The notes under the pieces were generated by a model. That model saw nothing but the letters and a program-made list of their open reading frames with translations, did not search any database and was not told the DNA's origin. Of a stretch of DNA of 58,943 nucleotides, positions 10,209 to 38,513 are shown piece by piece. A program made the position numbers and the translations under genes. Each line of letters starts with the position of its first letter. The first letter of the stretch is position 1. The stretch is taken from assembly GCF_900114545.1 (NCBI RefSeq), contig NZ_FOTI01000017.1, positions 1 through 58,943 of the forward strand, read 5' to 3'. The stretch is from Halanaerobium salsuginis (GTDB lineage: Bacteria > Bacillota > Halanaerobiia > Halanaerobiales > Halanaerobiaceae).

Positions 10209-11357
10209 TTAATTTAGCTTAAATTCATTCCTAATATTTATTGTCCGCATAATTTGAGCTGCTAATGATTCAATTAAAGCTGGTGTATATTGCTTAATTT
10301 CTTCAAATTGAGCTGGTTGGTTTATGATACTAAAATAAGCAGTAATTCCAACTTCGAGAACTGCTGCTGCATCTTCAGCAACTGTACCGGCAATAGCAAT
10401 TACCGGGATTTTATGTAGTTTTGCCTGCCGGGCTACTCCAACTGGAGTTTTACCATGAATTGACTGTCCATCAAGCTGACCCTCACCAGTAAATATTAAA
10501 TCTATTTCCTGGAGACGAGACTCAAAATCTATTTGTTCAAAAACAATATCTATTCCCGGTTTTAATTCAGCACCTAAAAAAGCAACCAGACCAGCTCCCA
10601 GACCACCAGCTGCTCCTGCTCCTGCTATTTTATTTAAATCTTTTCCAAATTGTTTCTTAACTAACCTGTTAAAATGGCGTAAATTTTGGTCAAGAATCTT
10701 AACTGCTGCCTGATCTGCCCCCTTCTGCGGCCCATAGACATAAGCAGCTCCTTGCTTACCAAATAGGGGATTATCTACATCACAGGCAACTAAAATTTCG
10801 ACCTCAGCCAAAGCTGGATCCAGACTGCTCAAGTCTATTTCAGCTAACTGATTTAAATTGCCTCCACCAAATCCGATTTCCTCTCCTTTTTTATCCAATA
10901 GCTTTGCCCCCAGAGCTTGAGCCATTCCTGCTCCAGCGTCATTTGTTGCACTGCCACCAATACCAATAATTATTTTTTCTACCTGGTGAGTAAGTGCGGC
11001 TGATATTAATTCACCAGTACCATAAGTTGTAGTCCAGAGAGGATTCTGATCTGATTTAGCAAGCAGAGGTAAACCAGAAGCAGCAGCCATCTCAATTACA
11101 GCAGTTTTATTATCACCTAAAATACCAAATTCAGCTTTAACTTGATTACCTGCTGGCCCAGTTACTTGCTCAGTAATTATTTTACCTTCAGTAGCATCTA
11201 CTAGAGCTTGAACTGTTCCTTCTCCTCCATCAGCCAGCGGTAATAAATCTACATCCTGCTCAGAATTATAAGCTAAAATACCTTTTTTAATATTTTCAGC
11301 AACTTCAAGTGCAGTTAATGATCCTTTAAAAGAATCTGGTGCAACTAATATCTTCAA
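10209..11357 (-). CDS. Glycerate 2-kinase (GarK/GlxK family), glucosylglycerate operon copy
   Basis: ATP-dependent phosphorylation of D-glycerate, by family to 2-phosphoglycerate. Start set at TTG 11355-11357 with AGGAGAG six bases upstream, giving the N-terminus MKILVAPDSFKGSL exactly as in the paralogue at 22035-23162. An in-frame TTG 18 bases earlier would bury the ribosome binding site. Family blocks present: LADGGEGT, MAAASGLPL, IIGIGGSATNDAGAGMAQAL, TGEGQLDGQS and GKTPVGVAR. It is the last gene of the operon with the dehydrogenase and sugar phosphorylase; the latter would release glycerate, which this kinase passes to glycolysis. Confidence 0.93.
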   Translation of the reverse strand: MKILVAPDSFKGSLTALEVAENIKKGILAYNSEQDVDLLPLADGGEGTVQALVDATEGKIITEQVTGPAGNQVKAEFGILGDNKTAVIEMAAASGLPLLAKSDQNPLWTTTYGTGELISAALTHQVEKIIIGIGGSATNDAGAGMAQALGAKLLDKKGEEIGFGGGNLNQLAEIDLSSLDPALAEVEILVACDVDNPLFGKQGAAYVYGPQKGADQAAVKILDQNLRHFNRLVKKQFGKDLNKIAGAGAAGGLGAGLVAFLGAELKPGIDIVFEQIDFESRLQEIDLIFTGEGQLDGQSIHGKTPVGVARQAKLHKIPVIAIAGTVAEDAAAVLEVGITAYFSIINQPAQFEEIKQYTPALIESLAAQIMRTINIRNEFKLN

Positions 11358-11380
11358 TTTCTTCTCTCCTTCCAAATAAA

Positions 11381-12352
11381 TTAATTTATCTGATTAATTG
11401 AGTTTCCTGCCAAAAAAGCAGTTAAATTAGCAACTACTGTTTTTAATAAACGCTGTCTAGATTCATGTGAAGCCCAGGCAATATGTGGGGTAATAATTGT
11501 GTTTTCTGAATTAAGCAGTGGATTATTTGAAGTTGGTGGTTCAGCTGCTAAAACATCAACAGCCGCTCCACTAACCTGGCCAGATTCTAAAGCAGCTGCT
11601 AAATCAGTTTCATTAATCAGTTCTCCGCGGGCAGTATTAATAATTATTACTCCCTCTTTCATCTGAGCAATACTCTGACGATTAATCATATCTCTAGTAG
11701 TTTCTGTTAAAGGGCAGTGCAGACTAATTATATCAGAAGTTTTATATAGATCTGTTAGTGAAAGAAATTTAATATTAGCTGTATTAATTTCTGGATCAGC
11801 CTTTTTTTGCTCTGCGCTTCTATCATAAGCAACAATTTTCATCTTAAATGCACGGGCCAGTTCTGCTGTTCGCTGGCCAATTCTACCATAACCAATCAAA
11901 CCTATTACTTTGTCCTGGAGTTCCACTAAAGGATAATTCCAGAAACAAAAATCATCAGCTCGCTGCCAGGCTCCATCCTTAACAGCATGATTATGCTCAC
12001 CAACATGATGAGCCAATTCTAACAACAGTGCAAACACAAATTGAGCAACTGCATCTGTTCCATAGGCTGGTACATTAGTAACTACTATTCCCTTTTCAGC
12101 CGCTGCTTTTATATCAATTACATTATAGCCTGTTGCCAGTACTCCAATATATTTTAAGTCAGGTAAGTCAGCTATTGTTTCAGCAGTTAAAGGTGTTTTA
12201 TTAGTTAATAAAACTTCTGCTCCCTGAGCTCTTGCCTTGATTTTCTCTTCTGGTGTACGAGGATATACCTGAAGCTCTCCCAAATCAGCCAATCCTTGCC
12301 AGCTTAGATCTCCCGGATTTAGTGCCTGGCCATCTAGAACTACTATTTTCAT
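11381..12352 (-). CDS. D-2-hydroxyacid dehydrogenase (glycerate/hydroxypyruvate dehydrogenase-like)
   Basis: 323 residues. NAD-binding motif GYGRIG at 154-159 with D177 at the end of the second strand (VAYDRS), which favours NAD(H). The catalytic trio is R242 (NTARGE), E271 (AAEPP) and H290 (TPHIAWAS). The family interconverts D-2-hydroxyacids and 2-ketoacids. Lying 23 bp ahead of glycerate kinase and behind the sugar phosphorylase, it probably acts on D-glycerate/hydroxypyruvate. D-lactate or another hydroxyacid cannot be excluded. ATG start behind GGAGGTAAAG. Confidence 0.85.
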   Translation of the reverse strand: MKIVVLDGQALNPGDLSWQGLADLGELQVYPRTPEEKIKARAQGAEVLLTNKTPLTAETIADLPDLKYIGVLATGYNVIDIKAAAEKGIVVTNVPAYGTDAVAQFVFALLLELAHHVGEHNHAVKDGAWQRADDFCFWNYPLVELQDKVIGLIGYGRIGQRTAELARAFKMKIVAYDRSAEQKKADPEINTANIKFLSLTDLYKTSDIISLHCPLTETTRDMINRQSIAQMKEGVIIINTARGELINETDLAAALESGQVSGAAVDVLAAEPPTSNNPLLNSENTIITPHIAWASHESRQRLLKTVVANLTAFLAGNSINQIN

Positions 12353-20192: not shown

Positions 20193-21080
20193 TTAGTTTT
20201 TTAAAGAAATATTATTTAATTTTTCATAAAAAAGACCAAGCCCACCATGATCAACTTCAGTATGACCATCAGAAATTAATTTCTGCATCATTTCCATAAC
20301 TTGAGCTGCCAGGGGCATATAAGTATGGAGTTCTCTACTAGTTTCAAAAGTATTTGTCAGATCTTTAACATGTAATTTCATTTTAAACCCAGGATCATAA
20401 TTACCTGCTAACATTCTAGGTGCCTTATCTTCCATACACTGGCTACCAGCCAGCCCACCTCTAATCGCATTAAATATTTTTTCAGGGTCAACTCCAGCTT
20501 TCTTTCCAAAGCTTAGTCCTTCAGCTACTGCAGCAATGTTAATTCCAACAATAATTTGATTAACTAATTTGGTAGTTTCTCCTGCTCCAATATCTCCAAC
20601 TAGAGTAACACTACCACCCATAACCTCTAGAATTGCTTTATTAGCTTTAAATACTTTCTCATTACCACCTACCATAAAAGCAACTGTACCAGCTTCTGCA
20701 CCTTCCTGACCTCCACTTACTGGTGCATCTAACATTTCTACTCCTTTTTCTAACAGAGCAGCAGCAACTTCCTGAGAAACTAGGGGAGAAATAGAACTCA
20801 TATCAATAAAAACCTGGCCTGATTTAACGCCTTCAATAAGTCCGTTTTCACCTAATGCTACAGCTTTAACGTGAGGAGAGTTAGGCAGCATAGTAATAAT
20901 AACTTCACTATTTTCTGCAATCTCTTTAGCTGTACTTAAACTTGCTGCCCCATAGTCAACTAATTCTTTAACTGATTCTTCATTTAAATCATTAACAATT
21001 AACTCATAACCAGCATCTATTAAATTCTTTGCCATCGGCTTACCCATAATACCCAGACCAATAAATCCTATTTTTTTCAT
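20193..21080 (-). CDS. garR: Tartronate semialdehyde reductase (2-hydroxy-3-oxopropionate reductase)
   Basis: 295 residues of the 3-hydroxyisobutyrate dehydrogenase-related family. Rossmann motif GFIGLGIMGKPMAKNL at the N-terminus, substrate loop DAPVSGGQEGAEAGT (about 118-132) and catalytic K171 in GAGETTKLVNQ. It should reduce tartronate semialdehyde to D-glycerate with NAD(P)H. It is the last gene of an operon with GudD, GarD, a DapA-family lyase and glycerate kinase, which fits the aldarate pathway exactly. Length is the same as the E. coli enzyme within a few residues. Confidence 0.93.
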   Translation of the reverse strand: MKKIGFIGLGIMGKPMAKNLIDAGYELIVNDLNEESVKELVDYGAASLSTAKEIAENSEVIITMLPNSPHVKAVALGENGLIEGVKSGQVFIDMSSISPLVSQEVAAALLEKGVEMLDAPVSGGQEGAEAGTVAFMVGGNEKVFKANKAILEVMGGSVTLVGDIGAGETTKLVNQIIVGINIAAVAEGLSFGKKAGVDPEKIFNAIRGGLAGSQCMEDKAPRMLAGNYDPGFKMKLHVKDLTNTFETSRELHTYMPLAAQVMEMMQKLISDGHTEVDHGGLGLFYEKLNNISLKN

Positions 21081-21120
21081 TAAAATTCACTCCTTAAGTA
21101 ATTTTAAATATTTATTTAAT

Positions 21121-22005
21121 TTAAAGTGCACCAATTTCTTTCAAAACTAGCTTTAGTTTTTCTTTTTTTTCTACAGCTAAATTTTTAATTGGTGCCAGCG
21201 TGTTGCCAGCATTTAATCCTAAAATATTAAGCCCATCTTTAAGTATTACTGGAAAAGAACCTAAGTCATAAGACATTCTAAGCTGTGATAATTTAAATTG
21301 TGCTTTCTTGGCTGCAGCAAGATTACCTTTTTGATATTCATCATAAATTTCAACTAACAATTTAGGTACTAAATTACCTGTTGAAGCAATAGTACCTTTA
21401 GCACCATAAACTAACCCACTCAAAATTAAAGTATCTTTACCAATCAAAACATTAAAATCAGGTTCAGTTTTCCGAATAAATTCACTAACTAAAGTCATAT
21501 CACCACTGCTATCTTTAATTCCAACAATATTATCTATTTTACTTAGCTTAACTAATAAATCAACTTCTATATTTACTCCTGTTCGAGCTGGATTATTATA
21601 AAGAAGAACAGGCAAGTCAACACTTCGAGCTACTGCTTTGAAATGATCATATAATTCTTCATTATTTGGATGAATAAACATTGGTGTAATTACTGAAACA
21701 GCATTAACACCAAGTTCTGCAGCTAATCTAGTCATTTTAATTGTATCTCTTGTTGTAATTAAACCAGTACCAGCATAAACAGGTACACGCCCTCTATTTT
21801 CAGCTAAGACTATCTTTAAAATCTTTTTTTTCTGTTCAAAGTCCAAACCATAACATTCACCGGTACTGCTAACTGCAAATAGTCCATGCACTCCACTTTC
21901 AATAAGAAAGTTAGTTAATTTTTTTAAAATATTTTCATCAATATCACCATATTCATCAAGTGGAGTTAACATAGCAGGTATAATTCCTTTAGCCTCAAAT
22001 TTCAT
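21121..22005 (-). CDS. DapA-family lyase, probable 5-keto-4-deoxy-glucarate aldolase
   Basis: 294 residues, class I pyruvate-dependent aldolase family (DHDPS/NAL). The Schiff-base lysine is K164 (VGIKDSSGD), the tyrosine Y136 in LLYNNPARTG, and the STGE loop is at 47-50. R141 aligns with the DHDPS arginine that binds the carboxylate of the aldehyde substrate. In this operon the missing step is cleavage of 5-keto-4-deoxy-glucarate to pyruvate and tartronate semialdehyde, which E. coli does with the unrelated GarL. A retained arginine suits an acidic aldehyde. The alternative, KdgD-type dehydration to 2-ketoglutarate semialdehyde, would need an aldehyde dehydrogenase that is absent here, while GarR and glycerate kinase are present. 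Activity is inferred. Confidence 0.75.
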   Translation of the reverse strand: MKFEAKGIIPAMLTPLDEYGDIDENILKKLTNFLIESGVHGLFAVSSTGECYGLDFEQKKKILKIVLAENRGRVPVYAGTGLITTRDTIKMTRLAAELGVNAVSVITPMFIHPNNEELYDHFKAVARSVDLPVLLYNNPARTGVNIEVDLLVKLSKIDNIVGIKDSSGDMTLVSEFIRKTEPDFNVLIGKDTLILSGLVYGAKGTIASTGNLVPKLLVEIYDEYQKGNLAAAKKAQFKLSQLRMSYDLGSFPVILKDGLNILGLNAGNTLAPIKNLAVEKKEKLKLVLKEIGAL

Positions 22006-22034
22006 TTTATCACTTCCTAAAATTTTATCTAAAA

Positions 22035-23162
22035 TTAAAAATCCAATTTCACTGTTCTCATTACCTGTTCAGCAATGAACTGCAGCCATTTACAGGTATT
22101 CTTTTCAGCTGCTAATTCTTGATCATAAAGCATATTAAAAACAGCATCAATTCCTTCCTGTAAAATATTTTCTACTCCTTCACCAAAGATTGCTGATATT
22201 CCGATCACTGGAATATTTTTTGCTTTTGCTGCTCTGGCTACTCCAATTGGAGTCTTTCCATTAACACTTTGGCTATCAAGTCGTCCTTCTCCAGTGATTA
22301 CCAGATCTACTCCATCTAATTTTGCTGTTAAATCAACTGCATCTAAAACTATTTCAATTCCTTTTTCTAATTTCGCATCTAAAAAAGCAAGCAAACCTGC
22401 TCCTAAACCACCAGCTGCTCCACTACCTGGAATATTTTGTACATCAATATCAAGTTTTTGTTTTAATAGTTCAGCAAAATAGTATAAATTGCTATCAAGT
22501 TCTTCTATCATTGCTGGAGTTGCACCTTTTTGTGGGCCATAAATAAAAGCAGCACCAGCCGGACCATAAAGTCTATTTGATACGTCACAAGCGACTCTAA
22601 TTTCAGTATCTTTTATCCTGGGATCAAGATTTGATAAATCAAAATCAACTATTTTTTTAAGTTGATTACCTCCAAAAGAAATTTCTTGACCAGTTTTATC
22701 TTTAAAACTGATGCCAAGTGCCTGGGCCATTCCGACACCTGCATCATTTGTAGCACTACCCCCTATGCCAATAATTAGTTTTTCTGATCCCTTATCAAGA
22801 GCAGCTTTAATTAATTCACCGGTTCCATAGGTAGTAGTGTATAAAGGATTTAATTCATTCTCAGGAATTAGAGGCAAACCAGAAGCCAGTGCCATTTCTA
22901 TCACACCAGTCTTACTAGCAGCTAAATAACCAAAATAAGACTTTATCTTGTTACCTAATGGACCTGTTACTTGCTGACTTATTATTTCTCCATTATGTGA
23001 ATCAACTAGAGACTGCATTGTACCTTCTCCGCCATCCGCCATTGGCACTTTTAATATTTCAGTATCTTTAGCAGCTTTTAAAATACCTCTTTCTATCTGA
23101 GTTGCAACTTCAAGTGCTGTTAAACTTCCTTTAAATGAATCTGGTGCAATAAGTATTTTCAT
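22035..23162 (-). CDS. garK: Glycerate 2-kinase, aldarate operon copy
   Basis: 375 residues with all glycerate kinase blocks: APDSFKGSL, MADGGEGTMQ, MALASGLPL, IGIGGSATNDAGVGMAQALG, ITGEGRLDSQS and NGKTPIGVAR. It would phosphorylate the D-glycerate made by the reductase two genes downstream, ending the glucarate/galactarate route at 2-phosphoglycerate. It is a clear paralogue of 10209-11357; two operons in one window keep separate copies. ATG start; the lyase gene follows after 29 bp. Confidence 0.94.
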   Translation of the reverse strand: MKILIAPDSFKGSLTALEVATQIERGILKAAKDTEILKVPMADGGEGTMQSLVDSHNGEIISQQVTGPLGNKIKSYFGYLAASKTGVIEMALASGLPLIPENELNPLYTTTYGTGELIKAALDKGSEKLIIGIGGSATNDAGVGMAQALGISFKDKTGQEISFGGNQLKKIVDFDLSNLDPRIKDTEIRVACDVSNRLYGPAGAAFIYGPQKGATPAMIEELDSNLYYFAELLKQKLDIDVQNIPGSGAAGGLGAGLLAFLDAKLEKGIEIVLDAVDLTAKLDGVDLVITGEGRLDSQSVNGKTPIGVARAAKAKNIPVIGISAIFGEGVENILQEGIDAVFNMLYDQELAAEKNTCKWLQFIAEQVMRTVKLDF

Positions 23163-23309
23163 ATTTCACCCCCAATAAGTGGATAGTTAATTTATAATTT
23201 TAGTCTATTGAAAAAAAACTTATAAAACAATATATAAAGTATTTAAATTAAAATCATCTACTAAACTTTTTTTGGGCAAGTTGACTAAACTATAATTTTA
23301 AAATATATA

Positions 23310-24818
23310 TCAAGTAACTGGAGCAGGATTAAATAAACATAATCTGTTTTCAATTTTCCATTTATCAGCCCAGGTTATTTTTTCTCCACTAGCAACCTCT
23401 ATTACATAATTAAATATTTCTTTTCCAACTTCTTCAATAGTAACTTCTCCATTTATAATTCTACCAGCATTTATATCAATTAGATCTTTCCACTTTTCTT
23501 TTAATTCACTTCTACTTGAAACTTTAATAACTGGAGCAGCTGCTAATCCATAAGGTGTTCCTCTTCCTGTAGTAAATACTTGTAAATTTATACCAGCAGC
23601 TAACTGTAGGGTGCCACAAATAAAATCACTAGCAGGCGTAGCACCAAAATTTAATCCTCTATTATTTAATTTTTCACCAGGACCTAAAACATCAACTATT
23701 TCAAGAGTACCAGATTTTTGTATTGATCCTAATGACTTTTCTACAATATTTACTAGTCCCCCCTTCTTATTACCTGGAGTAGGATTTGCATCTCTATCAA
23801 CATCACCTGAGTTAAGATAATCATCATACCAAGCAATTTCTGATTTTAATTTTTTGGCTACTTTTTTATCTTTAATTCTTGGAGCAATAAGATTTAATCC
23901 ATCCCTAACTTCAGAAACTTCAGAAAAGATAACAGAAGCGCCTGCTTGAACTAAAAGATCTACAGCATAACCTACAGCTGGATTAGCAGTAATACCAGAA
24001 AATGAATCGCTGCCTCCACATTGAACACCAACTACTAGTTCAGATAGAGGAAATTCTTTACGTTTTCGTCTATTTAATTTTTTTAAAGAAGATTTTATCG
24101 CTGAAATGATTGTATCCTGCATTTCTTCAAAACCAGATTCTTTTTGAAGTATAATGGTTTTTTTATCTTCATTTTTAAATAATTTATTTGCTTCTAGTTT
24201 TTCGCAACCTAAACTTAAAACTAAAAGATCACCAAAATTAGGATTTTGACTTAGATTCTTTAAAGTTTGAATTGGTATTTTGGCATCTGGAGAATTTATT
24301 GCAACTCCACAGCCATAGTTATGATTTATTGGTACTATTCCATCCACATTGGGGTAGTTCCTAAGTATATTATTTTTAACTTTTTCAATAGCTTTATTTA
24401 TTACTCCTTCAACACACTGAACACAGGTGAATATTGCTAATAGATTTTTAACTCCAACACTACCATCCTCATTCTTATAACCTTCAAAAGTGTAACCTTC
24501 TAAGGGTTCATATTTTTTAATATTTGTACCAAACTCCAAGTTTTCTAGTTTTGGTGATTCTGGTAATCTCACATTATTTTCATTAATCCATGCTCCTTGA
24601 GTAATATCCTCTGCTGCATAGGCAATAACATTTGCATATCGTATTATTTTATCACCTTTTTTAAAATCTCTTAAAGCTACTTTATGACCTTGAGGAATAT
24701 TCTCTTTTATTATAATACCATCTTCTAGCCTAGTTCCTTGCTTAATTCCATCAGTGTTAACAACAATCTTTACATTATCTTCTGGATGAATTTTTATTAG
24801 TTGAATATTTTTTTTCAT
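23310..24818 (-). CDS. garD: Galactarate dehydratase
   Basis: 502 residues, slightly shorter than E. coli GarD (523). The N-terminal SAF-like domain (about 1-95) contains the block IIKENIPQGHKVALRDF. The UxaA/GarD catalytic domain follows with EGYTFEGYKNEDGSVGVKN, INHNYGCGVAI, LSLGCEKLEANKLF, CGGSDSFSGITANPAVG and TTGRGTPYGLAAAPVIKV. It dehydrates meso-galactarate to 5-keto-4-deoxy-glucarate, using iron in the known enzyme. With GudD in the same operon, both aldarate isomers are covered. ATG start behind AAAGAGGTG. Confidence 0.93.
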   Translation of the reverse strand: MKKNIQLIKIHPEDNVKIVVNTDGIKQGTRLEDGIIIKENIPQGHKVALRDFKKGDKIIRYANVIAYAAEDITQGAWINENNVRLPESPKLENLEFGTNIKKYEPLEGYTFEGYKNEDGSVGVKNLLAIFTCVQCVEGVINKAIEKVKNNILRNYPNVDGIVPINHNYGCGVAINSPDAKIPIQTLKNLSQNPNFGDLLVLSLGCEKLEANKLFKNEDKKTIILQKESGFEEMQDTIISAIKSSLKKLNRRKRKEFPLSELVVGVQCGGSDSFSGITANPAVGYAVDLLVQAGASVIFSEVSEVRDGLNLIAPRIKDKKVAKKLKSEIAWYDDYLNSGDVDRDANPTPGNKKGGLVNIVEKSLGSIQKSGTLEIVDVLGPGEKLNNRGLNFGATPASDFICGTLQLAAGINLQVFTTGRGTPYGLAAAPVIKVSSRSELKEKWKDLIDINAGRIINGEVTIEEVGKEIFNYVIEVASGEKITWADKWKIENRLCLFNPAPVT

Positions 24819-24916
24819 TAATGCACCTCTTTTTCATACTGGGCTTAATATTACCACAAACTAATAGTTGGATTATTAATAAAAATATTTTGTAAGTTTA
24901 AAAATAATACACAGAT

Positions 24917-25366
24917 TTATTTTACAACTAAAACAGAAACTTGTGAATGCCTAACAACTTTTTCTGTAGTGCTACCAAGTAAAACATCTTTCATAGAGCT
25001 ATTTCCTTTATCAGCTAAAACTATTAAATCAAATTTATTTTTTTCAGCATAACTGCAAATATCTCTAGCAGGATTGTTTCCTTTTTTTACTATCCTATTA
25101 GTCTTTAAACCTTTTTTACCAAGAATTAACTCACATTTACCATAAATCATACTGCATGTTTCTAACGCTTCATCTGCAGCTTTTTTTCTTTTTTCCATTT
25201 GTTTATTCTCTCTATTGTAATCATCAATAGATGTTAAAAAATTATAATTATAATTCAGTATTGTTAAAAAAGCAACTTCTCCTTTACATAACAAAGCCAT
25301 TTCTTGAGCTTTTTTAGCAACTTTTGAGCAACTATCAGAACCTTTAATTGCTACCAATATCTTCAT
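24917..25366 (-). CDS. Universal stress protein (UspA family) embedded in the aldarate transport operon
   Basis: 149 residues, single Usp domain: MKILVAIKGSDSCSKVAKKA at the start and the nucleotide-loop region ADKGNSSMKDVLLGSTTEKVVRHSQVSVLVV at the end. Compared with the G-2x-G-9x-G(S/T) ATP motif, the first glycine is replaced by alanine while the second glycine and GS remain, so ATP binding is uncertain. It lies between tctA (34 bp upstream) and garD. By analogy with TeaD, a Usp protein that modulates the TeaABC TRAP transporter in Halomonas, it may regulate the TctABC importer; that is inference. Confidence 0.88.
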   Translation of the reverse strand: MKILVAIKGSDSCSKVAKKAQEMALLCKGEVAFLTILNYNYNFLTSIDDYNRENKQMEKRKKAADEALETCSMIYGKCELILGKKGLKTNRIVKKGNNPARDICSYAEKNKFDLIVLADKGNSSMKDVLLGSTTEKVVRHSQVSVLVVK

Positions 25367-25399
25367 AGAAATAAAATACCTCCTTTATACAAATATAAT

Positions 25400-26884
25400 T
25401 TAATTAAAATTAGTATTTCTGTACAGTCTATATTGACGGAAAATTACTGAAATTACTGAAATAAGAGTAGCAATTAAAAACAATAATGAAATTGGACTGG
25501 TAAATAACGGGGTTAAATCACCTGAGCTAGACATTAAAGCTCTTCTTAAATTACTTTCCGCCATTGGACCTAAAATAAAACCAATAATTAAAGGGGCTAA
25601 CTGTATCCCTACTTTTGAAAGCAAATAGCCAATAATACCAAATGCAATAACTACATAAACACTAAAAATATTATTATTTAAAGCAAAAGCACCTAAAGAA
25701 CAAGTAACAAAAACTATTGGTAAAAGTATTTCTTTAGGAATTTTTAAAATATTAATAAAAATTCTAATTCCATAAAACTCTACTAAAAGCATAATAAAAT
25801 TTGCTATAAGTAAAGCACCAAATATTCCATATATTAATTTAGGATTAGTCTTAAATAGTAATGGGCCTGGCTGTACTCCCTGAATCATTAAAGCACCTAA
25901 CAATACAGCTGTAGTACTATCTCCTGGTATTCCTAAAGCAAGTAAAGGGACTAATGCCCCACCAGTTAGTCCATTGTTTCCTGCCTCACTAGCAACAAGC
26001 CCATCTATAATTCCAGTTCCAAATTTTTCTGGATATTTAGAAGATTTTTTAGCCTGTCCATATGATAAAATTGAAGCTGTACTTCCACCTATACCTGGTA
26101 AAATACCTATCATAGTACCAATTACACCTGATCTTACAACATTAAATATTTGTTCTTTTAACTCTTTAAATGATAATCCAAATCCCTTAACTGTTTTAAC
26201 ATCATATATTTCCTTTTTTACTCCACTTTCTGCTTCTTTAAAAATTTCTGATACAGCAAATAGTCCAATAAGCACTGGTAAAAGTTCAAATCCCTGTTTA
26301 AGTTGAATGAAACCAAAAGTAAAACGATCAACCCCATCTACAGGAGCCATTCCAATTAAAGTAATACTCATACCAATTAATCCACTTATAATTCCCATTA
26401 GAAACGATCCTCTAGTTACAGTAGCAATCATTGTTAAAGCAAAAAATATTAAAGAAAAATATTCGAATGGACCAAATTTTAATGCTACTTTTGCAAGTAA
26501 AGGTGAAGCAAAAATTAAAATCAAAAAACTTATAACACCGCCTAGAAATGAAACCACTACAGCTGTTCCTAATGCTTTACCTGCTTTCCCTTTTTGAGTT
26601 AATGGATAACCATCAAAAGTACTTGCTATAGAAGATGGAGTGCCTGGCATATTTAATAAAACTGCTGGAATCAGTCCACCACTAATGCCACCAACATATA
26701 ATGAAATCATTACTGCCATTCCAGAAATTGGATCCATTGAGAAAGTTACTGGAATAAATAATACAACAGCCATAGTAGCAGTCATACCAGGAATAGATCC
26801 AAATATTATACCAATAATAACTCCAAGAAACATTAATAAAATTGTATGAAAATCTAAAACAGCTATAATTCCTCCTAAAAGCAT
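25400..26884 (-). CDS. tctA: Tripartite tricarboxylate transporter, large membrane subunit TctA
   Basis: 494 residues with about eleven to twelve helices. Signature blocks GIIFGSIPGMTATMAVVLFIP, GGISGGLIPAVLLNMPGTPSSIASTFDGYPL, GILPGIGGSTASILSY and EAGNNGLTGGALVPLLALGIPGDSTTAVLLGAL are diagnostic of TctA. It drives ion-coupled uptake of an organic acid delivered by the TctC protein. Its operon of glucarate and galactarate dehydratases makes an aldarate the likely cargo. ATG start with AAGGGGG upstream; 21 bp behind tctB. Confidence 0.95.
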   Translation of the reverse strand: MLLGGIIAVLDFHTILLMFLGVIIGIIFGSIPGMTATMAVVLFIPVTFSMDPISGMAVMISLYVGGISGGLIPAVLLNMPGTPSSIASTFDGYPLTQKGKAGKALGTAVVVSFLGGVISFLILIFASPLLAKVALKFGPFEYFSLIFFALTMIATVTRGSFLMGIISGLIGMSITLIGMAPVDGVDRFTFGFIQLKQGFELLPVLIGLFAVSEIFKEAESGVKKEIYDVKTVKGFGLSFKELKEQIFNVVRSGVIGTMIGILPGIGGSTASILSYGQAKKSSKYPEKFGTGIIDGLVASEAGNNGLTGGALVPLLALGIPGDSTTAVLLGALMIQGVQPGPLLFKTNPKLIYGIFGALLIANFIMLLVEFYGIRIFINILKIPKEILLPIVFVTCSLGAFALNNNIFSVYVVIAFGIIGYLLSKVGIQLAPLIIGFILGPMAESNLRRALMSSSGDLTPLFTSPISLLFLIATLISVISVIFRQYRLYRNTNFN

Positions 26885-26905
26885 AATTTTAAACCCCCTT
26901 ATACC

Positions 26906-27388
26906 CTATGGTAATGGAACATAAAATATATTTGTAAATAAATAATATAGTACTCCAACAATAAAGATTGATAAACAAAAATATTTAATAATTAGCTTTA
27001 TATTTATTTTTTCTGTCATAATAGTCATCTGTAAAGTAAGAAATAATATAGATATTACTATAAATCCAATTTTATTTAATAAAAATCCATAAGCTAAGCA
27101 ATTTAATAATGATAAAAATAATAATTTAAAATGAATATCTTTCTTTATATTGCATTTTTTATTTTGTGATATTCCCTTTTTTAATTGATAATTTTTATAA
27201 TTAACTAATATAAGAATTATACTAAAAATAGTTAATCCTAAAAAAATTATTCTAGGGAAAAAGGCTGCAGACACTTCTAAATGAGCCCTATTTGATATAT
27301 TATATGTATTTAAATAGCCGAAAAAAGAAAATATTATTAAAAAAATACCAAAGAAAATTTTCTTTTTATAAACTTTATAATCATTCAT
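26906..27388 (-). CDS. tctB: Tripartite tricarboxylate transporter, small membrane subunit TctB
   Basis: 160 residues with four predicted helices, beginning FGIFLIIFSFFGYLNTYNIS and including AFFPRIIFLGLTIFSIILIL, a family-like opening (the PRxxxxxL region). TctB is poorly conserved, so the call rests on size, topology and its place between tctC and tctA. It is separated from tctC by a 19-bp stem-loop. Confidence 0.88.
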   Translation of the reverse strand: MNDYKVYKKKIFFGIFLIIFSFFGYLNTYNISNRAHLEVSAAFFPRIIFLGLTIFSIILILVNYKNYQLKKGISQNKKCNIKKDIHFKLLFLSLLNCLAYGFLLNKIGFIVISILFLTLQMTIMTEKINIKLIIKYFCLSIFIVGVLYYLFTNIFYVPLP

Positions 27389-27407
27389 ATTAATTAATCA
27401 CCTCTTT

Positions 27408-27462
27408 TTTAATGTAAAAGAGAATATTCAAAAGATTTATTATTATTCTCTTTTACATTAAA
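27408..27462 (-). promoter_or_regulatory. Intercistronic stem-loop between tctC and tctB
   Basis: Positions 27408-27426 pair perfectly over 19 bp with 27444-27462, around a 17-nt loop, 23 bp behind the tctC stop. The core is AATGTAAAAGAGAATA against its complement. On the minus strand it is followed by AAAAAAGAGG, the latter being the tctB ribosome binding site, with no U-run of its own; partial termination or mRNA protection is more likely than a full stop. Confidence 0.85.
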
Positions 27463-27485
27463 GTTCTAATATAATTATTAATAAT

Positions 27486-28457
27486 TTAATTTACCTTATC
27501 ATATAACATTTTAAAATAATCTCGTTGATCAATTAAAAATTTTCTAGCAGATTTAGGATTCATATATTTAGGTCTTAACTTTACATTTGCTAAATCTTTC
27601 TCATATCCTGACATCTCTGTAGCCTTTTTTACACCCTCAGTAAAAGTATCAATAATTTCTTTTGGAGTATTTTTAGGAAATAAATAATAATAAGGTTTTG
27701 CAACAACTAGATTAATTCCTTGTTCTTTAAAAGTTGGAATAAAATCATAATCATCTTGACGTTCCTTTGCTGTAATTCCAAGTGAAACCATATCACCTGA
27801 TTTAATATATTGCAATATTGGAGAAACTATACCATATATTGCATCAACATGTCCTCCTAATAAAGAAGCATTTTTGGCAGATTGACCACCTACATCAACA
27901 AGTTTAAGATCTAAACCTGTTGCATCTGCAAATGCAAGTGATAACATATGAGAAGTTCCTCCAATTTCTATTCCCATTTTTAATTCTCCAGGATGCTTTT
28001 TACCATACTCAATAAATTCATCCAAATTACTAAATCTATCATCATCATCTCTTATTGCAAAAGTATTACCAGGTTCAAGTGTAACTATAGGTCCTTGTTT
28101 AAATGCTTCAAAATCATAATCAGTCACACCAAATATTTTAGCAAGATACAAAGAACTATGATAAAACATTACTGTATATCCATCCGGCTTAGACTGCATA
28201 ACATGTTGCGAAGCAATCAAACTACCTGCTCCCTCCATATTAACAACAGCAATATCTGTTCCCAGTGCCTTTTCTAAATATTTGGCAATTATTCTAGCAT
28301 TTGTATCTGTATCTCCACCAGGGCCAGCAGGAATAATTACCTGGATAGGTTTATTAGGATATGTATTAATGTTATTTTCAGCAAAAGAAGTTCCAGATAA
28401 GATTAATAAATTAACTATTAAAAATAAAATTATACTAAATAATTTTTTATTTATCAT
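27486..28457 (-). CDS. tctC: Tripartite tricarboxylate transporter, periplasmic-type binding protein TctC
   Basis: 323 residues. Signal peptide (KKLFSIILFLIVNLLILSG, cleaved after SFA). The family opening YPNKPIQVIIPAGPGGDTDTNAR and the segment VDVGGQSAKNASLLGGHVDAI are diagnostic of the Bug/TctC family, whose pocket closes around a carboxylate. Located directly behind gudD, so D-glucarate or galactarate is the probable ligand. ATG start with AAGGAGCG upstream. No lipobox cysteine was seen, so anchoring to the membrane is unclear. Confidence 0.94.
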   Translation of the reverse strand: MINKKLFSIILFLIVNLLILSGTSFAENNINTYPNKPIQVIIPAGPGGDTDTNARIIAKYLEKALGTDIAVVNMEGAGSLIASQHVMQSKPDGYTVMFYHSSLYLAKIFGVTDYDFEAFKQGPIVTLEPGNTFAIRDDDDRFSNLDEFIEYGKKHPGELKMGIEIGGTSHMLSLAFADATGLDLKLVDVGGQSAKNASLLGGHVDAIYGIVSPILQYIKSGDMVSLGITAKERQDDYDFIPTFKEQGINLVVAKPYYYLFPKNTPKEIIDTFTEGVKKATEMSGYEKDLANVKLRPKYMNPKSARKFLIDQRDYFKMLYDKVN

Positions 28458-28534
28458 TTTGTTCGCTCCTTATTTTTTAATATTTCGAAAATAATTTATT
28501 TAATTATTTGTTTTTTCATATTATTCTTTATTAA

Positions 28535-28560
28535 ATTCTAAATATAGCTATATTTAGAAT
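28535..28560 (-). promoter_or_regulatory. Perfect stem-loop overlapping the gudD stop codon
   Basis: A 26-bp perfect palindrome centred on AGCT: ATTCTAAATATAG (28548-28560 on the minus strand) and its complement. It begins inside the last codons of gudD and ends before tctC. On the minus strand TTTAATAAAG follows, giving at most a weak terminator; it may set the relative levels of the enzyme and the transporter. Confidence 0.75.
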
Positions 28561-29894
28561 TTATATTCTTTCAAGCTAGGCCTCTTACTATCAAATTCCC
28601 ATCCTTCAATTAAATATTGCATAGCAACTGAATCATCTCTTTTACCTAATTTTTTTTCTACATATAAATTATTAGCTTTTAAAAGCGATTGGCGATCTAT
28701 TTCTATTCCAAGTCCAGGTTGATTAGTTACTTTTATAGCTCCATCTTTTATTTGAGGAGGATTTTTTGTTAATCTTTCAGTTCCTTCTTGCCAAATCCAG
28801 TGTGTATCTATAGCAGTTATATCACCGGGAACTGCAGCTGCTACCTGACTAATCATTGCTAAAGATATGTCAAAATGATTATTAGAGTGCATACCCCATG
28901 TAAGGCCAAAAGCATTACATAATTGTCCAACTCTAACTGAGCCAGACATTGTCCAAAAATGGGGATCTGCTAGTGGTATATCAATAGAGTTTAAATAAAT
29001 AGCATGCTGCATTTGTCTCCAGTCTGTTGCAATCATATTAGTTGCTGTAGATAAACCAGTCATTTTTTTGAATTCTGCCATAATTTCTCTACCTGAAAAA
29101 CCTCTTTCTGCTCCACAAGGATCTTCACAATAAGCCAAAATTTCATTTTTATCTTTACACAATTTAACTGCTTCTTCCAAACTCCAGCACCCATTTGGAT
29201 CTATAGTTATTCTTGATTCAGGAAACCTATTTTTTAAAGCTTTAACCGATTCCATTTCAATTTCTCCAGAAAAAACACCTCCTTTAATTTTAAAATCCTT
29301 AAACCCATAAATTTCTTTTGCTGATTCGGCTAATTTCACAATTGCTTTTGGAGTAATAGCTTTTTCTCTTCTCAATCTATACCAATCAAAACTTGAATTT
29401 TTTTCTCTATGATACGGCAAATCAGTTAAATCTGGATCACCAATATAAAATAAATAGCCTAAAACTCTAACTAAATCTCTTTGTTTTCCATTTCCTAATA
29501 AAGATGCAACTGGAACTTTTAGATGTTTCCCCAATAAATCAAGAAAAGCTGTTTCAATAGCTGTTATAGAATGAATTGCTGTCCTTAAATCAAATGTTTG
29601 TAATCCACGACCTTTTTTATCTAGATGGCTAAATTTGTTGTATACTTTATGTATAATATTTTTATATTCACCAAGAGATTCTCCTATAATAAATTTTTTT
29701 GCATTCTCTAAATTTCTTCTAATTAATTCACCTCCTGGTACTTCTCCTAAACCATAATTTCCATTATCATCTGTTAATATTAAAATATTTCTTGTAAAAA
29801 ATGGAGCATGAGCTCCACTTAAATTTAATAACATACTATCTCTACCTGCAACTGGTATTACCTCTAATTCAGTAATCTTGGGAGGATTAAACAA
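28554..29894 (-). CDS. gudD: D-glucarate dehydratase
   Basis: 446 residues, the same length as E. coli GudD, enolase superfamily. The K-x-K pair is K202/K204 (FKIKGG). Metal ligands D232 (TIDPNGCW), E263 (GAERGF) and N286 ([10 protein letters not shown]), and the D310/H336 dyad ([16 protein letters not shown]), each align with the E. coli residues at a constant offset of three. It dehydrates D-glucarate (and usually L-idarate) to 5-keto-4-deoxy-glucarate. The start is TTG at 29892-29894 or a nearby codon behind AAGGAGATGG. First gene of the structural operon, below a promoter with a palindromic operator. Confidence 0.95.
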
Positions 29895-30019
29895 ATCAGA
29901 CCATCTCCTTATTAATATTTATCTAATATATATATTATAGATTTTCACTAATTGTCTTAACTCAATTTAATTGTATTATGCATCCCTAAAATCAACAATA
30001 TACAAAATATTTAAATAAA

Positions 30020-30047
30020 AATATAAATCACAAAGATTTTTGTGCAA
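30020..30047 (-). promoter_or_regulatory. gudD operon promoter with embedded palindromic operator
   Basis: On the minus strand TTGCAC (30042-30047) and TATATT (30020-30025) are 16 bp apart. The perfect palindrome CACAAAGATTTTTGTG (30029-30044 on the plus strand; arms CACAAA/TTTGTG) overlaps the -35 box and spacer, where a regulator would compete with RNA polymerase or activate from it. The neighbouring CdaR-type and IclR-type proteins are the candidates. A second possible -10, TATAAT, occurs nearer gudD. Confidence 0.6.
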
Positions 30048-30060
30048 ACTATCTAGTCAA

Positions 30061-31221
30061 CTATTTATTAAATAAAAAAATATGATATCCAATTAACAAA
30101 GTAAATAAATTAGATAAATTTTTCAAATCATACCCTGTTTCATCTCTAATTTTATTCAACTGATAAAGGAGTGTATTACGGTGAACATATAATTCCTTAG
30201 CAGTTTGACTAATATTTAAGTCATTCTTTATTAAAGCATCTATAATTTTACCCAATTCATATTGATTAAATAACTCATTTATTTTTATCTTATTATTCCC
30301 TCTAAAAAGATTATTCAAAAAATTTTGGGCATGATGATCATCTATAAATGGAATTAAATAATCATAGCCAAATTCACTTATATTATAAATACCATTTTTA
30401 GCAGAAAAATTAAGTTTTTCACCAATTTCAAGTGCAAATTTGGCTTCCTGATAAGATATATGTAAAGCAGACAGTTCATTGACTGTCCTCCCTATGCCAA
30501 TTTTAGGATCAGAAATTTCCTTAGCAATCTTTAAGTTTATATTTTTAGCTAACTCGAGAATTTTTTGCTCTTGAATTTTATTTTTAATAAAATTCACTGA
30601 TTTAATTAAGACAAGATTGTCACCTCTAATTAAAAAAATATCATTTGCCTTAATAAAACTAAGTCTGTTAAGTCTATTAGTTAAATTAGTAACTAGCTTA
30701 CTGTTAAACTCAGTAAATTTAATCAAATAGACAACTCTGTTCAAATTTTTGTTTAATTTAAATAACTTAGCTTTATCAGCTAATAAATTTTGATCTTTAA
30801 TCTCATTATTTAATAGCTGCTGATAAAAGTTTTCTTTAGCTTTTTTATCAAGTTCAATCTCATGCCGCAAAAATTCCTGCTGTAAAATTAACTCAACCAT
30901 ATTTTTTACTATTTTACCATATCCAGCTACTTCGGCTACTTTGCCTGTTATACCAACAACTCCAATTATAGATTTATTAAATAAAATTGGTAAATTTATC
31001 CCTTCTCTAACTCCTTTAAATTCTTTACTTTCTCCAGACTTAATTATAAATTTTTGCTGGGTTTCTATCACCTGGTTAGCTACTTCATGAAAAGTATTGA
31101 GTCTATTTTTATCACCACTGCCTATTATTATTCCCTGACTATTCATTATATTAATATTCTTACCTAAAACATCCATCGTTTTTGTCACTATTTTTTCTGC
31201 TAACTCTCTAGTCAAATTCAC
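30061..31221 (-). CDS. cdaR: CdaR-family sugar diacid regulator
   Basis: 386 residues. The N-terminal diacid-recognition domain (about 1-135: LTRELAEKIVTKTMDVLGKN, GVREGINLPILFNKSIIGVVGITG) precedes a central GGDEF-like linker region and a C-terminal PucR/CdaR helix-turn-helix (LNISQTAKELYVHRNTLLYQLNKI, about 340-365). In E. coli CdaR activates gud/gar genes in response to glucarate, galactarate or glycerate. It is placed directly upstream of gudD, so it is very likely the operon activator. Start is GTG behind AAAGGAG. An IclR gene precedes it by 42 bp, giving the cluster two regulators. Confidence 0.92.
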   Translation of the reverse strand: MNLTRELAEKIVTKTMDVLGKNINIMNSQGIIIGSGDKNRLNTFHEVANQVIETQQKFIIKSGESKEFKGVREGINLPILFNKSIIGVVGITGKVAEVAGYGKIVKNMVELILQQEFLRHEIELDKKAKENFYQQLLNNEIKDQNLLADKAKLFKLNKNLNRVVYLIKFTEFNSKLVTNLTNRLNRLSFIKANDIFLIRGDNLVLIKSVNFIKNKIQEQKILELAKNINLKIAKEISDPKIGIGRTVNELSALHISYQEAKFALEIGEKLNFSAKNGIYNISEFGYDYLIPFIDDHHAQNFLNNLFRGNNKIKINELFNQYELGKIIDALIKNDLNISQTAKELYVHRNTLLYQLNKIRDETGYDLKNLSNLFTLLIGYHIFLFNK

Positions 31222-31263
31222 CTTTTAACTCCTTTCTACAATTTTAAAAAAATATAGCTTATT

Positions 31264-32043
31264 TTAGAGCGGATTATATAGACTATAGCCTAAAATATGA
31301 GATATTTTATTAGCTGTAGTAGATAATTTTTCTAAATTTTCTTCTACTACAATTTTTTGTTCTTTAAATAAACGACGATCGGAAATACTTAATGCCGCCT
31401 CAATCATGCCTTGACTATTCCAGATTGGAACTGCTATACAACGAGTTCCTTTAATATACTCTTCATCATCATTTGCATAACCATTTTTATTAACCTGTTC
31501 CAATTCTCTTTTAAATTCGATCTGACTGGTAATTGTATTTTCTGTTATTTTTTCTAATTTTAAATTACTAATAATTTCTGTTTGTTTTGCTTTAATTTGA
31601 AAAGCAAGCAATATTTTTCCTAAACCAGTTGCATGTAATGGAACTCTACGTCCCACATGATAATAAGTATCAGGAATATTTGGACTGGGTGCTCTTAAAA
31701 TATAGGTAACCTCCTGTTGATCAAGTATACCTAAACTAACATTAACTTCTAAATCAGCAGCTAGTTTATTTACATAAGGTAGAGCAACTCTTCTTACTTC
31801 TAATGAATTCAAAATTATTTTGGCGAAATTTAACCCTTTAAAACCTAAGGAATATTTATCATGATTATTTTTTTTTAAATAACCAAGATATTCTAAACTC
31901 TGCAGTAAACGCCAGACGGAACTGGAACTAAATTCTAACAATTCGGTTATTTCTTGAGCAGTATATTCTAAATTATTTTCATTGAATAGTTCTAGTATCT
32001 TAAATGCATTCGCTAAAGACTGATTTAAATATTCTTTTTCCAT
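31264..32043 (-). CDS. IclR-family transcriptional regulator of the aldarate cluster
   Basis: 259 residues: N-terminal winged helix (about 8-70, SLANAFKILELFNENNLEYTA, EITELLEFSSSSVWRLLQSLEYLGYL) and C-terminal IclR effector domain (VGRRVPLHATGLGKILLAF, RCIAVPIWNSQGMIEAALSISDRR). This family senses small organic acids. Its position at the head of the cluster suggests repression in the absence of substrate, in concert with the CdaR-type activator. ATG start; the promoter lies in the AT-rich stretch behind the terminator at 32206-32237. Confidence 0.88.
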   Translation of the reverse strand: MEKEYLNQSLANAFKILELFNENNLEYTAQEITELLEFSSSSVWRLLQSLEYLGYLKKNNHDKYSLGFKGLNFAKIILNSLEVRRVALPYVNKLAADLEVNVSLGILDQQEVTYILRAPSPNIPDTYYHVGRRVPLHATGLGKILLAFQIKAKQTEIISNLKLEKITENTITSQIEFKRELEQVNKNGYANDDEEYIKGTRCIAVPIWNSQGMIEAALSISDRRLFKEQKIVVEENLEKLSTTANKISHILGYSLYNPL

Positions 32044-35887: not shown

Positions 35888-36787
35888 TCAGTTAGATAAA
35901 TAATTATTTTCAATCAGAGTAATTTTTTCAGTCAAATTATCAAATTCACTTTTACTTAAATCACTAATTGGTTCTCTACTATAAACTGCTTTAAAACCTC
36001 TAATCTCAATAGCTCTTTTATAATAAGCAAGATTACTACCGCCATTTAAAACTTTACCAGTCAAAGTAATTGCCTCCTGCATTCTCCTTGCTGTTTTTAA
36101 ATCGCTTTGCTGCAAAGCCTGCTTGAGTTTTACAAAAAACTCAGGAAAAACGTTGGCATGACCTGATACAACTGCTTTAGCACCATATAAAAAAGCTGGA
36201 TAAGCTAATAAATCATTACCCATTATCACATCAAATCCAGCTGGACTTTGATCAATTAATGTATATAATCTTTCTAAATCCCCCATACTATTTTTAATTC
36301 CAATAATATTTTTAACTGCTGCTAATTTAGCTACTGAATCTGGTAATAAGTCATTTGTAGTATAGGAAGGTAAGTTATAAAGATAAATATTCAGCTCAGG
36401 AGCTGCCTGCTCTGCTAAATTAAGATAATAATTAATTAACTGCTGTTGAGTAAATTTATAATAAAAAGGAGTTACAGCACCTAAACCAGCTACTCCAATC
36501 TCTTTGGCAAATTCAATCATCTGCTGGGCTAAATCAATTCTTAAATCTCCAATATGTAAAAAAATCGGCACTCTTGCTGCTACAATTTCGATAATTGACC
36601 GGGCCAACTCTTTTCTTTCATTAATATCCAACAAAAATATTTCAGCTGCTGTTCCTAAAATATAAAGCGAATCAACACCACTCTCAATTAGAAAGTTAAT
36701 ATGTTCAGTTAAAAAGTCAAAATCAATTTCACCCGATTTTTTAAAAGGGGTCATTAACGCCGGAGCAATTCCTGTTAATCTTTTCAT
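35888..36787 (-). CDS. DapA-family aldolase, candidate 2-keto-3-deoxygluconate aldolase
   Basis: 299 residues. Schiff-base lysine K165 (IIGIKNSMGD) and Y137 in IYLYNLPSYTT are conserved. The position of the DHDPS carboxylate-binding arginine is tyrosine (Y142), unlike the paralogue at 21121-22005, so a neutral aldehyde such as glyceraldehyde is more likely. It lies behind kduI and kduD, which together make 2-keto-3-deoxygluconate (KDG). No KDG kinase or KDPG aldolase is present, so direct cleavage of KDG to pyruvate and glyceraldehyde is proposed. It has its own extended -10 (36827-36835) after a terminator. N-acetylneuraminate lyase-like or other acids remain possible. Confidence 0.72.
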   Translation of the reverse strand: MKRLTGIAPALMTPFKKSGEIDFDFLTEHINFLIESGVDSLYILGTAAEIFLLDINERKELARSIIEIVAARVPIFLHIGDLRIDLAQQMIEFAKEIGVAGLGAVTPFYYKFTQQQLINYYLNLAEQAAPELNIYLYNLPSYTTNDLLPDSVAKLAAVKNIIGIKNSMGDLERLYTLIDQSPAGFDVIMGNDLLAYPAFLYGAKAVVSGHANVFPEFFVKLKQALQQSDLKTARRMQEAITLTGKVLNGGSNLAYYKRAIEIRGFKAVYSREPISDLSKSEFDNLTEKITLIENNYLSN

Positions 36788-36894: not shown

Positions 36895-37659
36895 TTAACT
36901 TGCCAGCCAACCACCATCAACTGGAATAATTGATCCATGTACATAATCTGCTGCCTGTGATGCTAAAAATATAGCCGCTCCTTTTAAATCATTGTTAGTT
37001 CCCCAGCGTCCAGCTGGAATTCTACTTAAAATACTGCTGCTTCTTGCTTCATCATTTCGTAAAGCAGCAGTGTTATTTGTTGCTATATAACCAGGTGCAA
37101 TCGCATTAACATTGATTTTATGTTGAGCCAATTCATTACAGAATGATTTAGTTATTCCTGCTACAGCATGTTTGCTGGCTGTATAAGAAGGAACAAATTT
37201 GCCACCTTGATAAGATAACATTGATGCTGTATTAATTATTTTACCAGCAATTTTATTTTTAACAAAATAATTAGCTACTTTTTGAGTTAAAATAAATAAA
37301 CTGCGTAAATTAACTGTCAGCACTGCATCCCAATCTTCAATTGGAAATTCAAGAATTGGATTGCGTTTAATCATGCCCGCATTATTTACTAAAATATCTA
37401 TTTTCCCATATTCAGCCAGGGTCTTATCAATTATCTCATCTAAACTCTTTTCTTTTAATAAATCAGCTTTAATTGCTAAAAAATCACGCCCGGTTTTAGC
37501 TGCAATAATCTCTTTTATTTCACTTAAGTCACTCCGGGCCACCCCAGCTATATCAGCACCTGCTTCAGCCAGTCCTTCTGCAATTGCGTAACCAATCCCC
37601 TGCTTACTAGAACAGCCTGTTACTATAGCTACTTTATCTTCTAAATCAAATAGATCCAC
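36895..37659 (-). CDS. kduD: 2-dehydro-3-deoxy-D-gluconate 5-dehydrogenase (KduD), SDR family
   Basis: About 254 residues, short-chain dehydrogenase. Nucleotide motif TGCSSKQGIGYAIAEGLA, NNAGMI, catalytic S (NTASMLSYQGG), YTASK and the GYIATNNT loop. It reduces 2,5-diketo-3-deoxygluconate to 2-keto-3-deoxygluconate. Start is set at GTG 37657-37659, eight bases behind AAGGAG; an earlier GTG (37668) overlaps the ribosome binding site. Preceded by kduI (24 bp) as usual for unsaturated-uronate operons. Gluconate 5-dehydrogenase activity is the alternative. Confidence 0.9.
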   Translation of the reverse strand: MDLFDLEDKVAIVTGCSSKQGIGYAIAEGLAEAGADIAGVARSDLSEIKEIIAAKTGRDFLAIKADLLKEKSLDEIIDKTLAEYGKIDILVNNAGMIKRNPILEFPIEDWDAVLTVNLRSLFILTQKVANYFVKNKIAGKIINTASMLSYQGGKFVPSYTASKHAVAGITKSFCNELAQHKINVNAIAPGYIATNNTAALRNDEARSSSILSRIPAGRWGTNNDLKGAAIFLASQAADYVHGSIIPVDGGWLAS

Positions 37660-37682
37660 GTTGTCCACTCCTTTTAAAAGTA

Positions 37683-38513
37683 CTATTTTAAAGTTTCCAT
37701 TCTTACATGATCCATATCAGTAAAAGTCTGATTTTCTCCTACCATTCCCCAGATAAAAGTGTAGTTAGCAGTTCCAACTCCTGAATGAATTGAATAACTA
37801 GGGCTAATTACAGCTTCTTCATTTCGAACAACTAAATGTCTGCTTTCTGCTGGTTCTCCCATTAAATGCCATACTATATTATCAGATTCAATATCAAAAT
37901 AAAAATAAACTTCCATGCGCCGTTCATGAGTATGACAGGGCATTGTATTCCAGACATTACGCGGCTCTAAAATAGTCATTCCCATTAACAGCTGACAGGT
38001 ATCTAAGACATCTGGATGTAAATATTTATAGATAGTTCTCTTATTTGAGTTTTCTAATGAACCAGCAGCTTCTGGTTTAGCATCTTTAATGTTAATTTTC
38101 TTATTTGGATAACTTTTATGTGCGGGTGCACTATTTAAATAAAATTTAGCTGGTTTATTTTTATCAATACTACTAAAGATTATTTCTTGCTTACCTTTAC
38201 CAATATAAATTCCATCTCTTGAGTTAAGAATATATTCTTCACCATCAACTATAATTTTGCCCTTACCACCGATATTAATAACTCCCATTTCTCGTCTAGC
38301 TAGAAAATATTCAGCTCCTATTTCTTGACCAGCTTCTAATTTAATATCTTGATTAACTGGTTTAATTCCCCCAACAATTATTCGATCAATATGACTATAA
38401 ACTAAATTTTGTTGATCTTGTTTAAATAAGTTTTGAATCAAAAATTCTTTTCTCATTCTAGCTGTATCAAATCTTTTAGCATCAACTGGATGAACACCAT
38501 TTCTAATTTCCAT
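37683..38513 (-). CDS. kduI: 4-deoxy-L-threo-5-hexosulose-uronate ketol-isomerase
   Basis: 276 residues, cupin-fold KduI. Metal ligands H194, H196 and E201 (MPCHTHERRMEVYFYF) and H243 (YSIHSGVGT) align with E. coli H196, H198, E203 and H245. The start MEIRNGVHPVDAKRFDTARM is typical. It isomerises the ring-opened unsaturated galacturonate from pectin (or other glycuronan) to the substrate of KduD. It sits in an operon with the TRAP transporter. ATG start behind GGGAG. Confidence 0.95.
   Translation of the reverse strand: MEIRNGVHPVDAKRFDTARMRKEFLIQNLFKQDQQNLVYSHIDRIIVGGIKPVNQDIKLEAGQEIGAEYFLARREMGVINIGGKGKIIVDGEEYILNSRDGIYIGKGKQEIIFSSIDKNKPAKFYLNSAPAHKSYPNKKINIKDAKPEAAGSLENSNKRTIYKYLHPDVLDTCQLLMGMTILEPRNVWNTMPCHTHERRMEVYFYFDIESDNIVWHLMGEPAESRHLVVRNEEAVISPSYSIHSGVGTANYTFIWGMVGENQTFTDMDHVRMETLK

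What the first reader, a model, noticed from the sequence alone, without database searches (positions are those of the whole stretch)
21121..22005. DapA-family lyase as a non-orthologous replacement for GarL in the aldarate pathway
The operon has GudD, GarD, GarR and glycerate kinase but no GarL and no 2-ketoglutarate semialdehyde dehydrogenase. The only candidate for splitting 5-keto-4-deoxy-glucarate is this DapA-family protein. It keeps K164, Y136 and R141, the last aligning with the DHDPS arginine that holds the aldehyde's carboxylate. Tartronate semialdehyde carries such a carboxylate. Together these argue for an aldolase rather than a KdgD-type dehydratase.
Basis: partly seen in the sequence, partly recalled or inferred. 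Interest (0 to 1): 0.72.

Follow-up and report, generated by a model that had tools for sequence, protein, structure and literature searches.

The report
GudL-type aldolase in a glucarate/galactarate operon
The gene very probably encodes GudL, a DapA-like enzyme that splits the common breakdown intermediate of the sugar acids glucarate and galactarate; such a stand-in for E. coli's GarL was published in 2025 from other bacteria, so this is a further example in a new lineage, not a new kind of enzyme.

Summary
On the minus strand at 21121-22005 an intact 294-aa DHDPS/NAL-superfamily protein sits 29 bp after glycerate kinase and 40 bp before GarR, in an operon with GudD, GarD, TctABC and CdaR. 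The whole genome shows no GarL (the only HpcH/HpaI hit is pyruvate kinase) and no aldehyde dehydrogenase suited to the KdgD route; its lysine-pathway dapA is elsewhere. The aldolase reading is supported, but already known: Levy et al. 2025 (PMC11775122) named GudL, a DapA-like putative 5-KDG aldolase that complements E. coli ΔgarL. The window protein carries the published signature (M109, K164, K190 = M110, K167, K194) and falls in one clade with 13 homologs encoded beside GarR, GarD or GudD elsewhere, apart from KdgD, DHDPS, NAL and YagE. None of those neighbourhoods has an aldehyde dehydrogenase; all have GarR. Small addition: M109 is kept in all 13 operon-linked relatives, but K190, called universal in the paper, is not (3 of 13). 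I found no published product identification for any GudL. New member of a known kind; interest low.

The parts
21121..22005 (-). gudL: DapA-like (DHDPS/NAL superfamily) putative 5-keto-4-deoxyglucarate aldolase, 294 aa; Schiff-base K164, Y136, R141, GudL-signature M109 and K190
20193..21080 (-). garR: tartronate semialdehyde reductase (NF008592 415 bits, cut-off 397; TIGR01505 369, cut-off 341)
22035..23162 (-). garK/glxK: glycerate kinase (TIGR00045 477 bits, cut-off 168); 53% identical to E. coli GarK over 245 aa
23310..24818 (-). garD: galactarate dehydratase (TIGR03248 772 bits, cut-off 731)
24917..25366 (-). universal stress protein family gene inside the operon
   Evidence: PF00582
25400..26884 (-). 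tctA: tripartite tricarboxylate transporter large membrane subunit; likely sugar-diacid uptake (inferred)
   Evidence: PF01970
26906..27388 (-). tctB-like small membrane subunit (by position and size)
   Evidence: inference from position
27486..28457 (-). tctC: substrate-binding receptor of the same transporter
   Evidence: PF03401
28554..29894 (-). gudD: glucarate dehydratase (TIGR03247 743 bits, cut-off 829; 70% identical to the gudD next to gudL in L018)
30061..31221 (-). cdaR-like sugar-diacid regulator (PF05651 Diacid_rec, PucR-type HTH)
31264..32043 (-). IclR-family regulator, likely the first gene of the cluster; a 64% identical one heads the gudL cluster in L018

Best explanation
The gene is gudL. 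Its product is a class I (Schiff-base) aldolase of the DHDPS/NAL superfamily. GudD and GarD dehydrate D-glucarate and galactarate to 5-keto-4-deoxyglucarate (5-KDG); K164 forms a Schiff base with its keto group, Y136 with S47/T48 shuttles the proton, and the C-C bond breaks to pyruvate and tartronate semialdehyde; GarR reduces the latter to glycerate and the kinase phosphorylates it to 2-phosphoglycerate. M109 and K190 shape the GudL pocket and, with R141, may hold the distal carboxylate. Shown here: gene, operon, residue identities, clade membership, absence of alternatives. Taken from the paper: complementation of ΔgarL by homologs, and its loss on mutating M110 or K167 (reduced for K194A). 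Inferred: the reaction of this particular protein, the proton relay, and the role of R141.
For: Operon with GudD, GarD, GarR and glycerate kinase, gudL 29 and 40 bp from its neighbours. No GarL or suitable aldehyde dehydrogenase in the genome; the lysine dapA is a separate gene in lysA-dapA-dapB-dapH. Published signature M110/K167/K194 aligns to M109/K164/K190; the 57/27 spacing of the published residues is reproduced exactly in A. provencensis L024, one of the clusters drawn in that paper. Tree: window plus all 13 gar-linked homologs and three others form one clade, 98/97, KdgD apart at 100/100; window-with-KdgD rejected, p-AU 0.018. GarR in 13 of 13 linked loci, no aldehyde dehydrogenase in any. 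M109 in 13/13 linked and 1/13 unlinked homologs, p 2.7e-6. In 38 genomes of the order, GudD and GudL with the M/K signature occur in the same two.
Against: I found no product identification for any GudL: complementation in E. coli is indirect, and the paper itself says 'putative'. The clade's support drops to 89/94 when long-branch paralogs are left out. The protein passes the NCBIfam cut-off for dapA (231 against 206), so automatic annotation would call it DHDPS. K190 is not universal among operon-linked relatives. The linked/unlinked comparison is small, and its rows share ancestry, so the p-value overstates independence.
Confidence: 0.9

Rival explanations
1. It is a KdgD-type 5-KDG dehydratase/decarboxylase feeding 2-ketoglutarate semialdehyde to a dehydrogenase encoded elsewhere.
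For: KdgD belongs to the same superfamily and acts on the same substrate; one KdgD operon (L072) also carries a glxR gene beside kdgD, so GarR alone does not exclude the route.
Against: 128 bits against a KdgD cut-off of 374; about 25% identity to four KdgD proteins, separate branch at 100/100, window-with-KdgD rejected p-AU 0.018; no KGSADH-like aldehyde dehydrogenase in the operon, the genome or any of 13 linked loci; GarR and the glycerate kinase would be idle.
Confidence: 0.05
2. It is an ordinary DHDPS (lysine synthesis) that happens to lie in the operon.
For: Passes the TIGR00674 dapA cut-off; best PDB matches are DHDPS.
Against: A true dapA lies in lysA-dapA-dapB-dapH. The DHDPS triad tyrosine Y107 is F110 here and Y106 is M109. 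It groups with gar-linked proteins, not with EcDapA/L001.
Confidence: 0.02
3. It is a 2-keto-3-deoxy-sugar-acid aldolase (YagE/YjhH or KDG type) with another main substrate, recruited secondarily.
For: Same chemistry; many DHDPS-superfamily aldolases are promiscuous (general knowledge). A second DapA-like protein in the window sits with kduD/kduI.
Against: YagE and YjhH branch elsewhere; the operon makes only 5-KDG, and GarR and the kinase match its aldol products.
Confidence: 0.03

Closest known systems
GudL of Enterocloster clostridioformis and Fusobacterium nucleatum (Levy et al. 2025, PMC11775122)
   Same: DapA-like protein in an operon with garR and other gud/gar genes, no GarL; M110, K167, K194 present at the aligned positions; E. 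coli ΔgarL complemented by both homologs (partially by the F. nucleatum one).
   Different: Window protein is in a sister branch (about 44% identical to the A. provencensis GudL), M-K-K spacing 55/26 instead of 57/27; the operon uses a TctABC-type transporter rather than the GarABC ABC transporter; not itself tested.
GarL (E. coli 5-KDG aldolase, HpcH/HpaI family)
   Same: Same expected reaction and pathway position.
   Different: Unrelated family (metal-dependent class II type, general knowledge); absent from this genome.
KdgD (5-dehydro-4-deoxyglucarate dehydratase)
   Same: Same superfamily, Schiff-base lysine and tyrosine, same substrate.
   Different: Dehydrates and decarboxylates; about 25% identity, separate clade, shorter loop after Y-N, needs KGSADH.
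DHDPS (DapA) and N-acetylneuraminate lyase
   Same: Superfamily and Schiff-base chemistry; R141 aligns with DapA R138.
   Different: DapA Y106/Y107 are M109/F110 here; separate clades.

Membership tests
GudL (DapA-like 5-KDG aldolase) | DHDPS/NAL superfamily protein with Schiff-base lysine (K167) | tested here: met
   PF00701 264 bits, K164 aligned to EcDapA K161; AlphaFold2 model pLDDT 86.7, alternating strand/helix pattern
GudL (DapA-like 5-KDG aldolase) | M110 and K194 in place of ancestral Y and N | tested here: met
   M109 and K190
GudL (DapA-like 5-KDG aldolase) | Groups with known GudL in a tree, apart from other DapA-like families | tested here: met
   17-row clade 98/97 including A. 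provencensis L024; 89/94 without long-branch paralogs. The E. clostridioformis sequence itself was not in hand
GudL (DapA-like 5-KDG aldolase) | Minimum pathway GudD or GarD plus GarR in the genome, GarL missing | tested here: met
GudL (DapA-like 5-KDG aldolase) | Replaces GarL (complementation) and yields pyruvate plus tartronate semialdehyde | not testable with these tools
   complementation shown for two homologs in PMC11775122; no product identification found in the sections read
KdgD | Score above the curated KdgD cut-off / grouping with KdgD | tested here: not met
   127.8 against 373.95 bits; p-AU 0.018 against the grouping
KdgD | KGSA dehydrogenase in operon or genome | tested here: not met
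DHDPS (DapA) | Curated score and the T44-Y107-Y133 triad | tested here: not met
   score met (231 against 206) but Y107 is F110 and T44 is S47; lysine dapA is elsewhere
GarL (HpcH/HpaI) | PF03328 / TIGR03239 match | tested here: not met
   only PF00701 matches; genome hit is pyruvate kinase

The most novel reading that the evidence does not exclude
GudL is a broader family than published: all gar-operon-linked DapA-like aldolases share M109 and Y-N-N (N138), while position 190 (K in the window and in published GudL, but R, S, T, Q or I in relatives beside garR/garD/gudD) and position 141 (R or K) vary, so the distal carboxylate would be held in several ways and K194 would not define the family.
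Probability: 0.55. Interest if true: 0.25.

Novelty: new member of a known kind. Interest (0 to 1): 0.17.

Why it matters
It adds a GudL case from an order where the pathway is rare (2 of 38 genomes), with a different transporter, and shows that annotation pipelines would mislabel it as lysine-pathway DapA. It also suggests that the residue rule given for GudL (K194) misses many operon-linked relatives. The central idea is already published.

Tried and rejected
Genome-contig scan with A2 used weak peptide patterns and gave only three loci, though one was A. provencensis; the E. clostridioformis protein could not be fetched by name. No solved structure of a GudL turned up; nearest are DHDPS. 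A structure comparison was not run, since sequence already fixes the fold. Promoter and terminator scans found no more than shuffled sequence. Literature searches beyond PMC11775122 found no earlier or later GudL paper in the held library.

Full report
What is there. The finding's coordinates hold an intact gene on the minus strand, 21121-22005, 294 aa; the plus strand is closed by many stops. The protein matches Pfam DHDPS with 264 bits. In transcription order the cluster reads IclR regulator, CdaR-like regulator, GudD, TctC, TctB, TctA, a universal stress protein, GarD, glycerate kinase, the DapA-like gene, GarR, all on the minus strand, with gaps of 21 to 166 bp (identities).

Absence of the usual enzymes. 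The genome (99.9% complete) has no GarL: PF03328 and TIGR03239 hit only a 594-aa protein below cut-off, which reads as pyruvate kinase next to a phosphofructokinase-like gene. Aldehyde dehydrogenase superfamily members are three: an acetaldehyde-dehydrogenase-like protein, an 864-aa AdhE-sized protein and ProA beside ProB; these identities come from reading the sequences and neighbours, not from a family scan. None is a credible KGSA dehydrogenase. Five PF00701 proteins exist: the lysine-pathway DapA in lysA-dapA-dapB-dapH, this one, one with kduD/kduI in the same window, one beside a mandelate-racemase-family protein and one beside a GntP-like transporter.

Already described. Levy et al. 2025 (PMC11775122) found that Enterocloster clostridioformis lacks GarL and uses a DapA-like protein, GudL, in the garR operon. 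It restored glucarate and galactarate fermentation to E. coli ΔgarL as strongly as garL itself; the F. nucleatum protein did so partially. K167A, M110A and M110Y abolished it, K194A reduced it. The authors call it a putative aldolase; no product identification was found in the sections read.

Is this protein a GudL? In my alignment M109, K164 and K190 sit at the published positions. The spacing of the three published residues (57, 27) is exactly that of the A. provencensis protein in L024, a species whose gar cluster appears in the paper's Fig. 1B; the window protein has 55, 26 through short gaps. In a maximum-likelihood tree of 41 proteins the window protein lies in a 17-row clade (98/97) with all 13 homologs that are encoded beside GarR, GarD or GudD, while four KdgD proteins form a separate branch (100/100), and DHDPS, NAL and YagE/YjhH lie elsewhere. 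Without long-branch paralogs the clade stays, with 89/94, and joining the window to KdgD is rejected (p-AU 0.018).

Aldolase or dehydratase. All 13 linked loci carry GarR; none carries an aldehyde dehydrogenase, while the kdgD operon used as a control does. GudD and GudL with the M/K signature occur in the same two of 38 genomes of the order; the other GarD-like hits there are 33-40% identical and probably altronate dehydratases (inference). This, with the published complementation, favours the aldolase at about 0.9.

The residue argument. So R141 is compatible with carboxylate binding but does not argue for aldolase over dehydratase. M109 does track the operon: 13/13 linked against 1/13 unlinked. 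K190 does not: K in only 3 of 13 linked homologs (window not counted), with R, S, T, Q or I in the rest. The published statement that K194 is universal in GudL may hold for the authors' clade but not for this wider operon-linked set; whether those relatives have the same activity is untested.

Model. AlphaFold2 on four sequences gives mean pLDDT 86.7 and an alternation of strands and helices as expected for a TIM barrel, with low confidence at 48-51. Pocket geometry was not measured.

Verdict. New member of a known kind.

Noticed in passing
35888-36787 (-), with 36895-37668 and 37683-38513: A second DapA-family protein (28% identical to GudL by alignment) directly after KduD and KduI and a TRAP transporter; perhaps a KDG aldolase finishing the uronate route without KDG kinase. 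It is below every NCBIfam cut-off and has Y at the position of R141.
   Followed up: partly
10209-11375 (-): A second glycerate kinase (55% identical to E. coli GarK over 244 aa) beside a D-2-hydroxyacid-dehydrogenase-like gene at 11381-12352, in a different gene group.
   Followed up: no
L058 5114-5818, L059 11456-12223, L019 12341-13099: Three GudL-clade proteins without a full gar operon nearby have a GarL-like (HpcH/HpaI, 28-32% identical) gene within about 5 kb; their role is unclear.
   Followed up: no
24917-25366 (-): A universal stress protein gene sits inside the operon between tctA and garD.
   Followed up: no
window 20193-32043: None of the 11 other sampled genomes of the genus has gudD or a gudL-like protein at the thresholds used, which suggests gain of the cluster by transfer.
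   Followed up: partly
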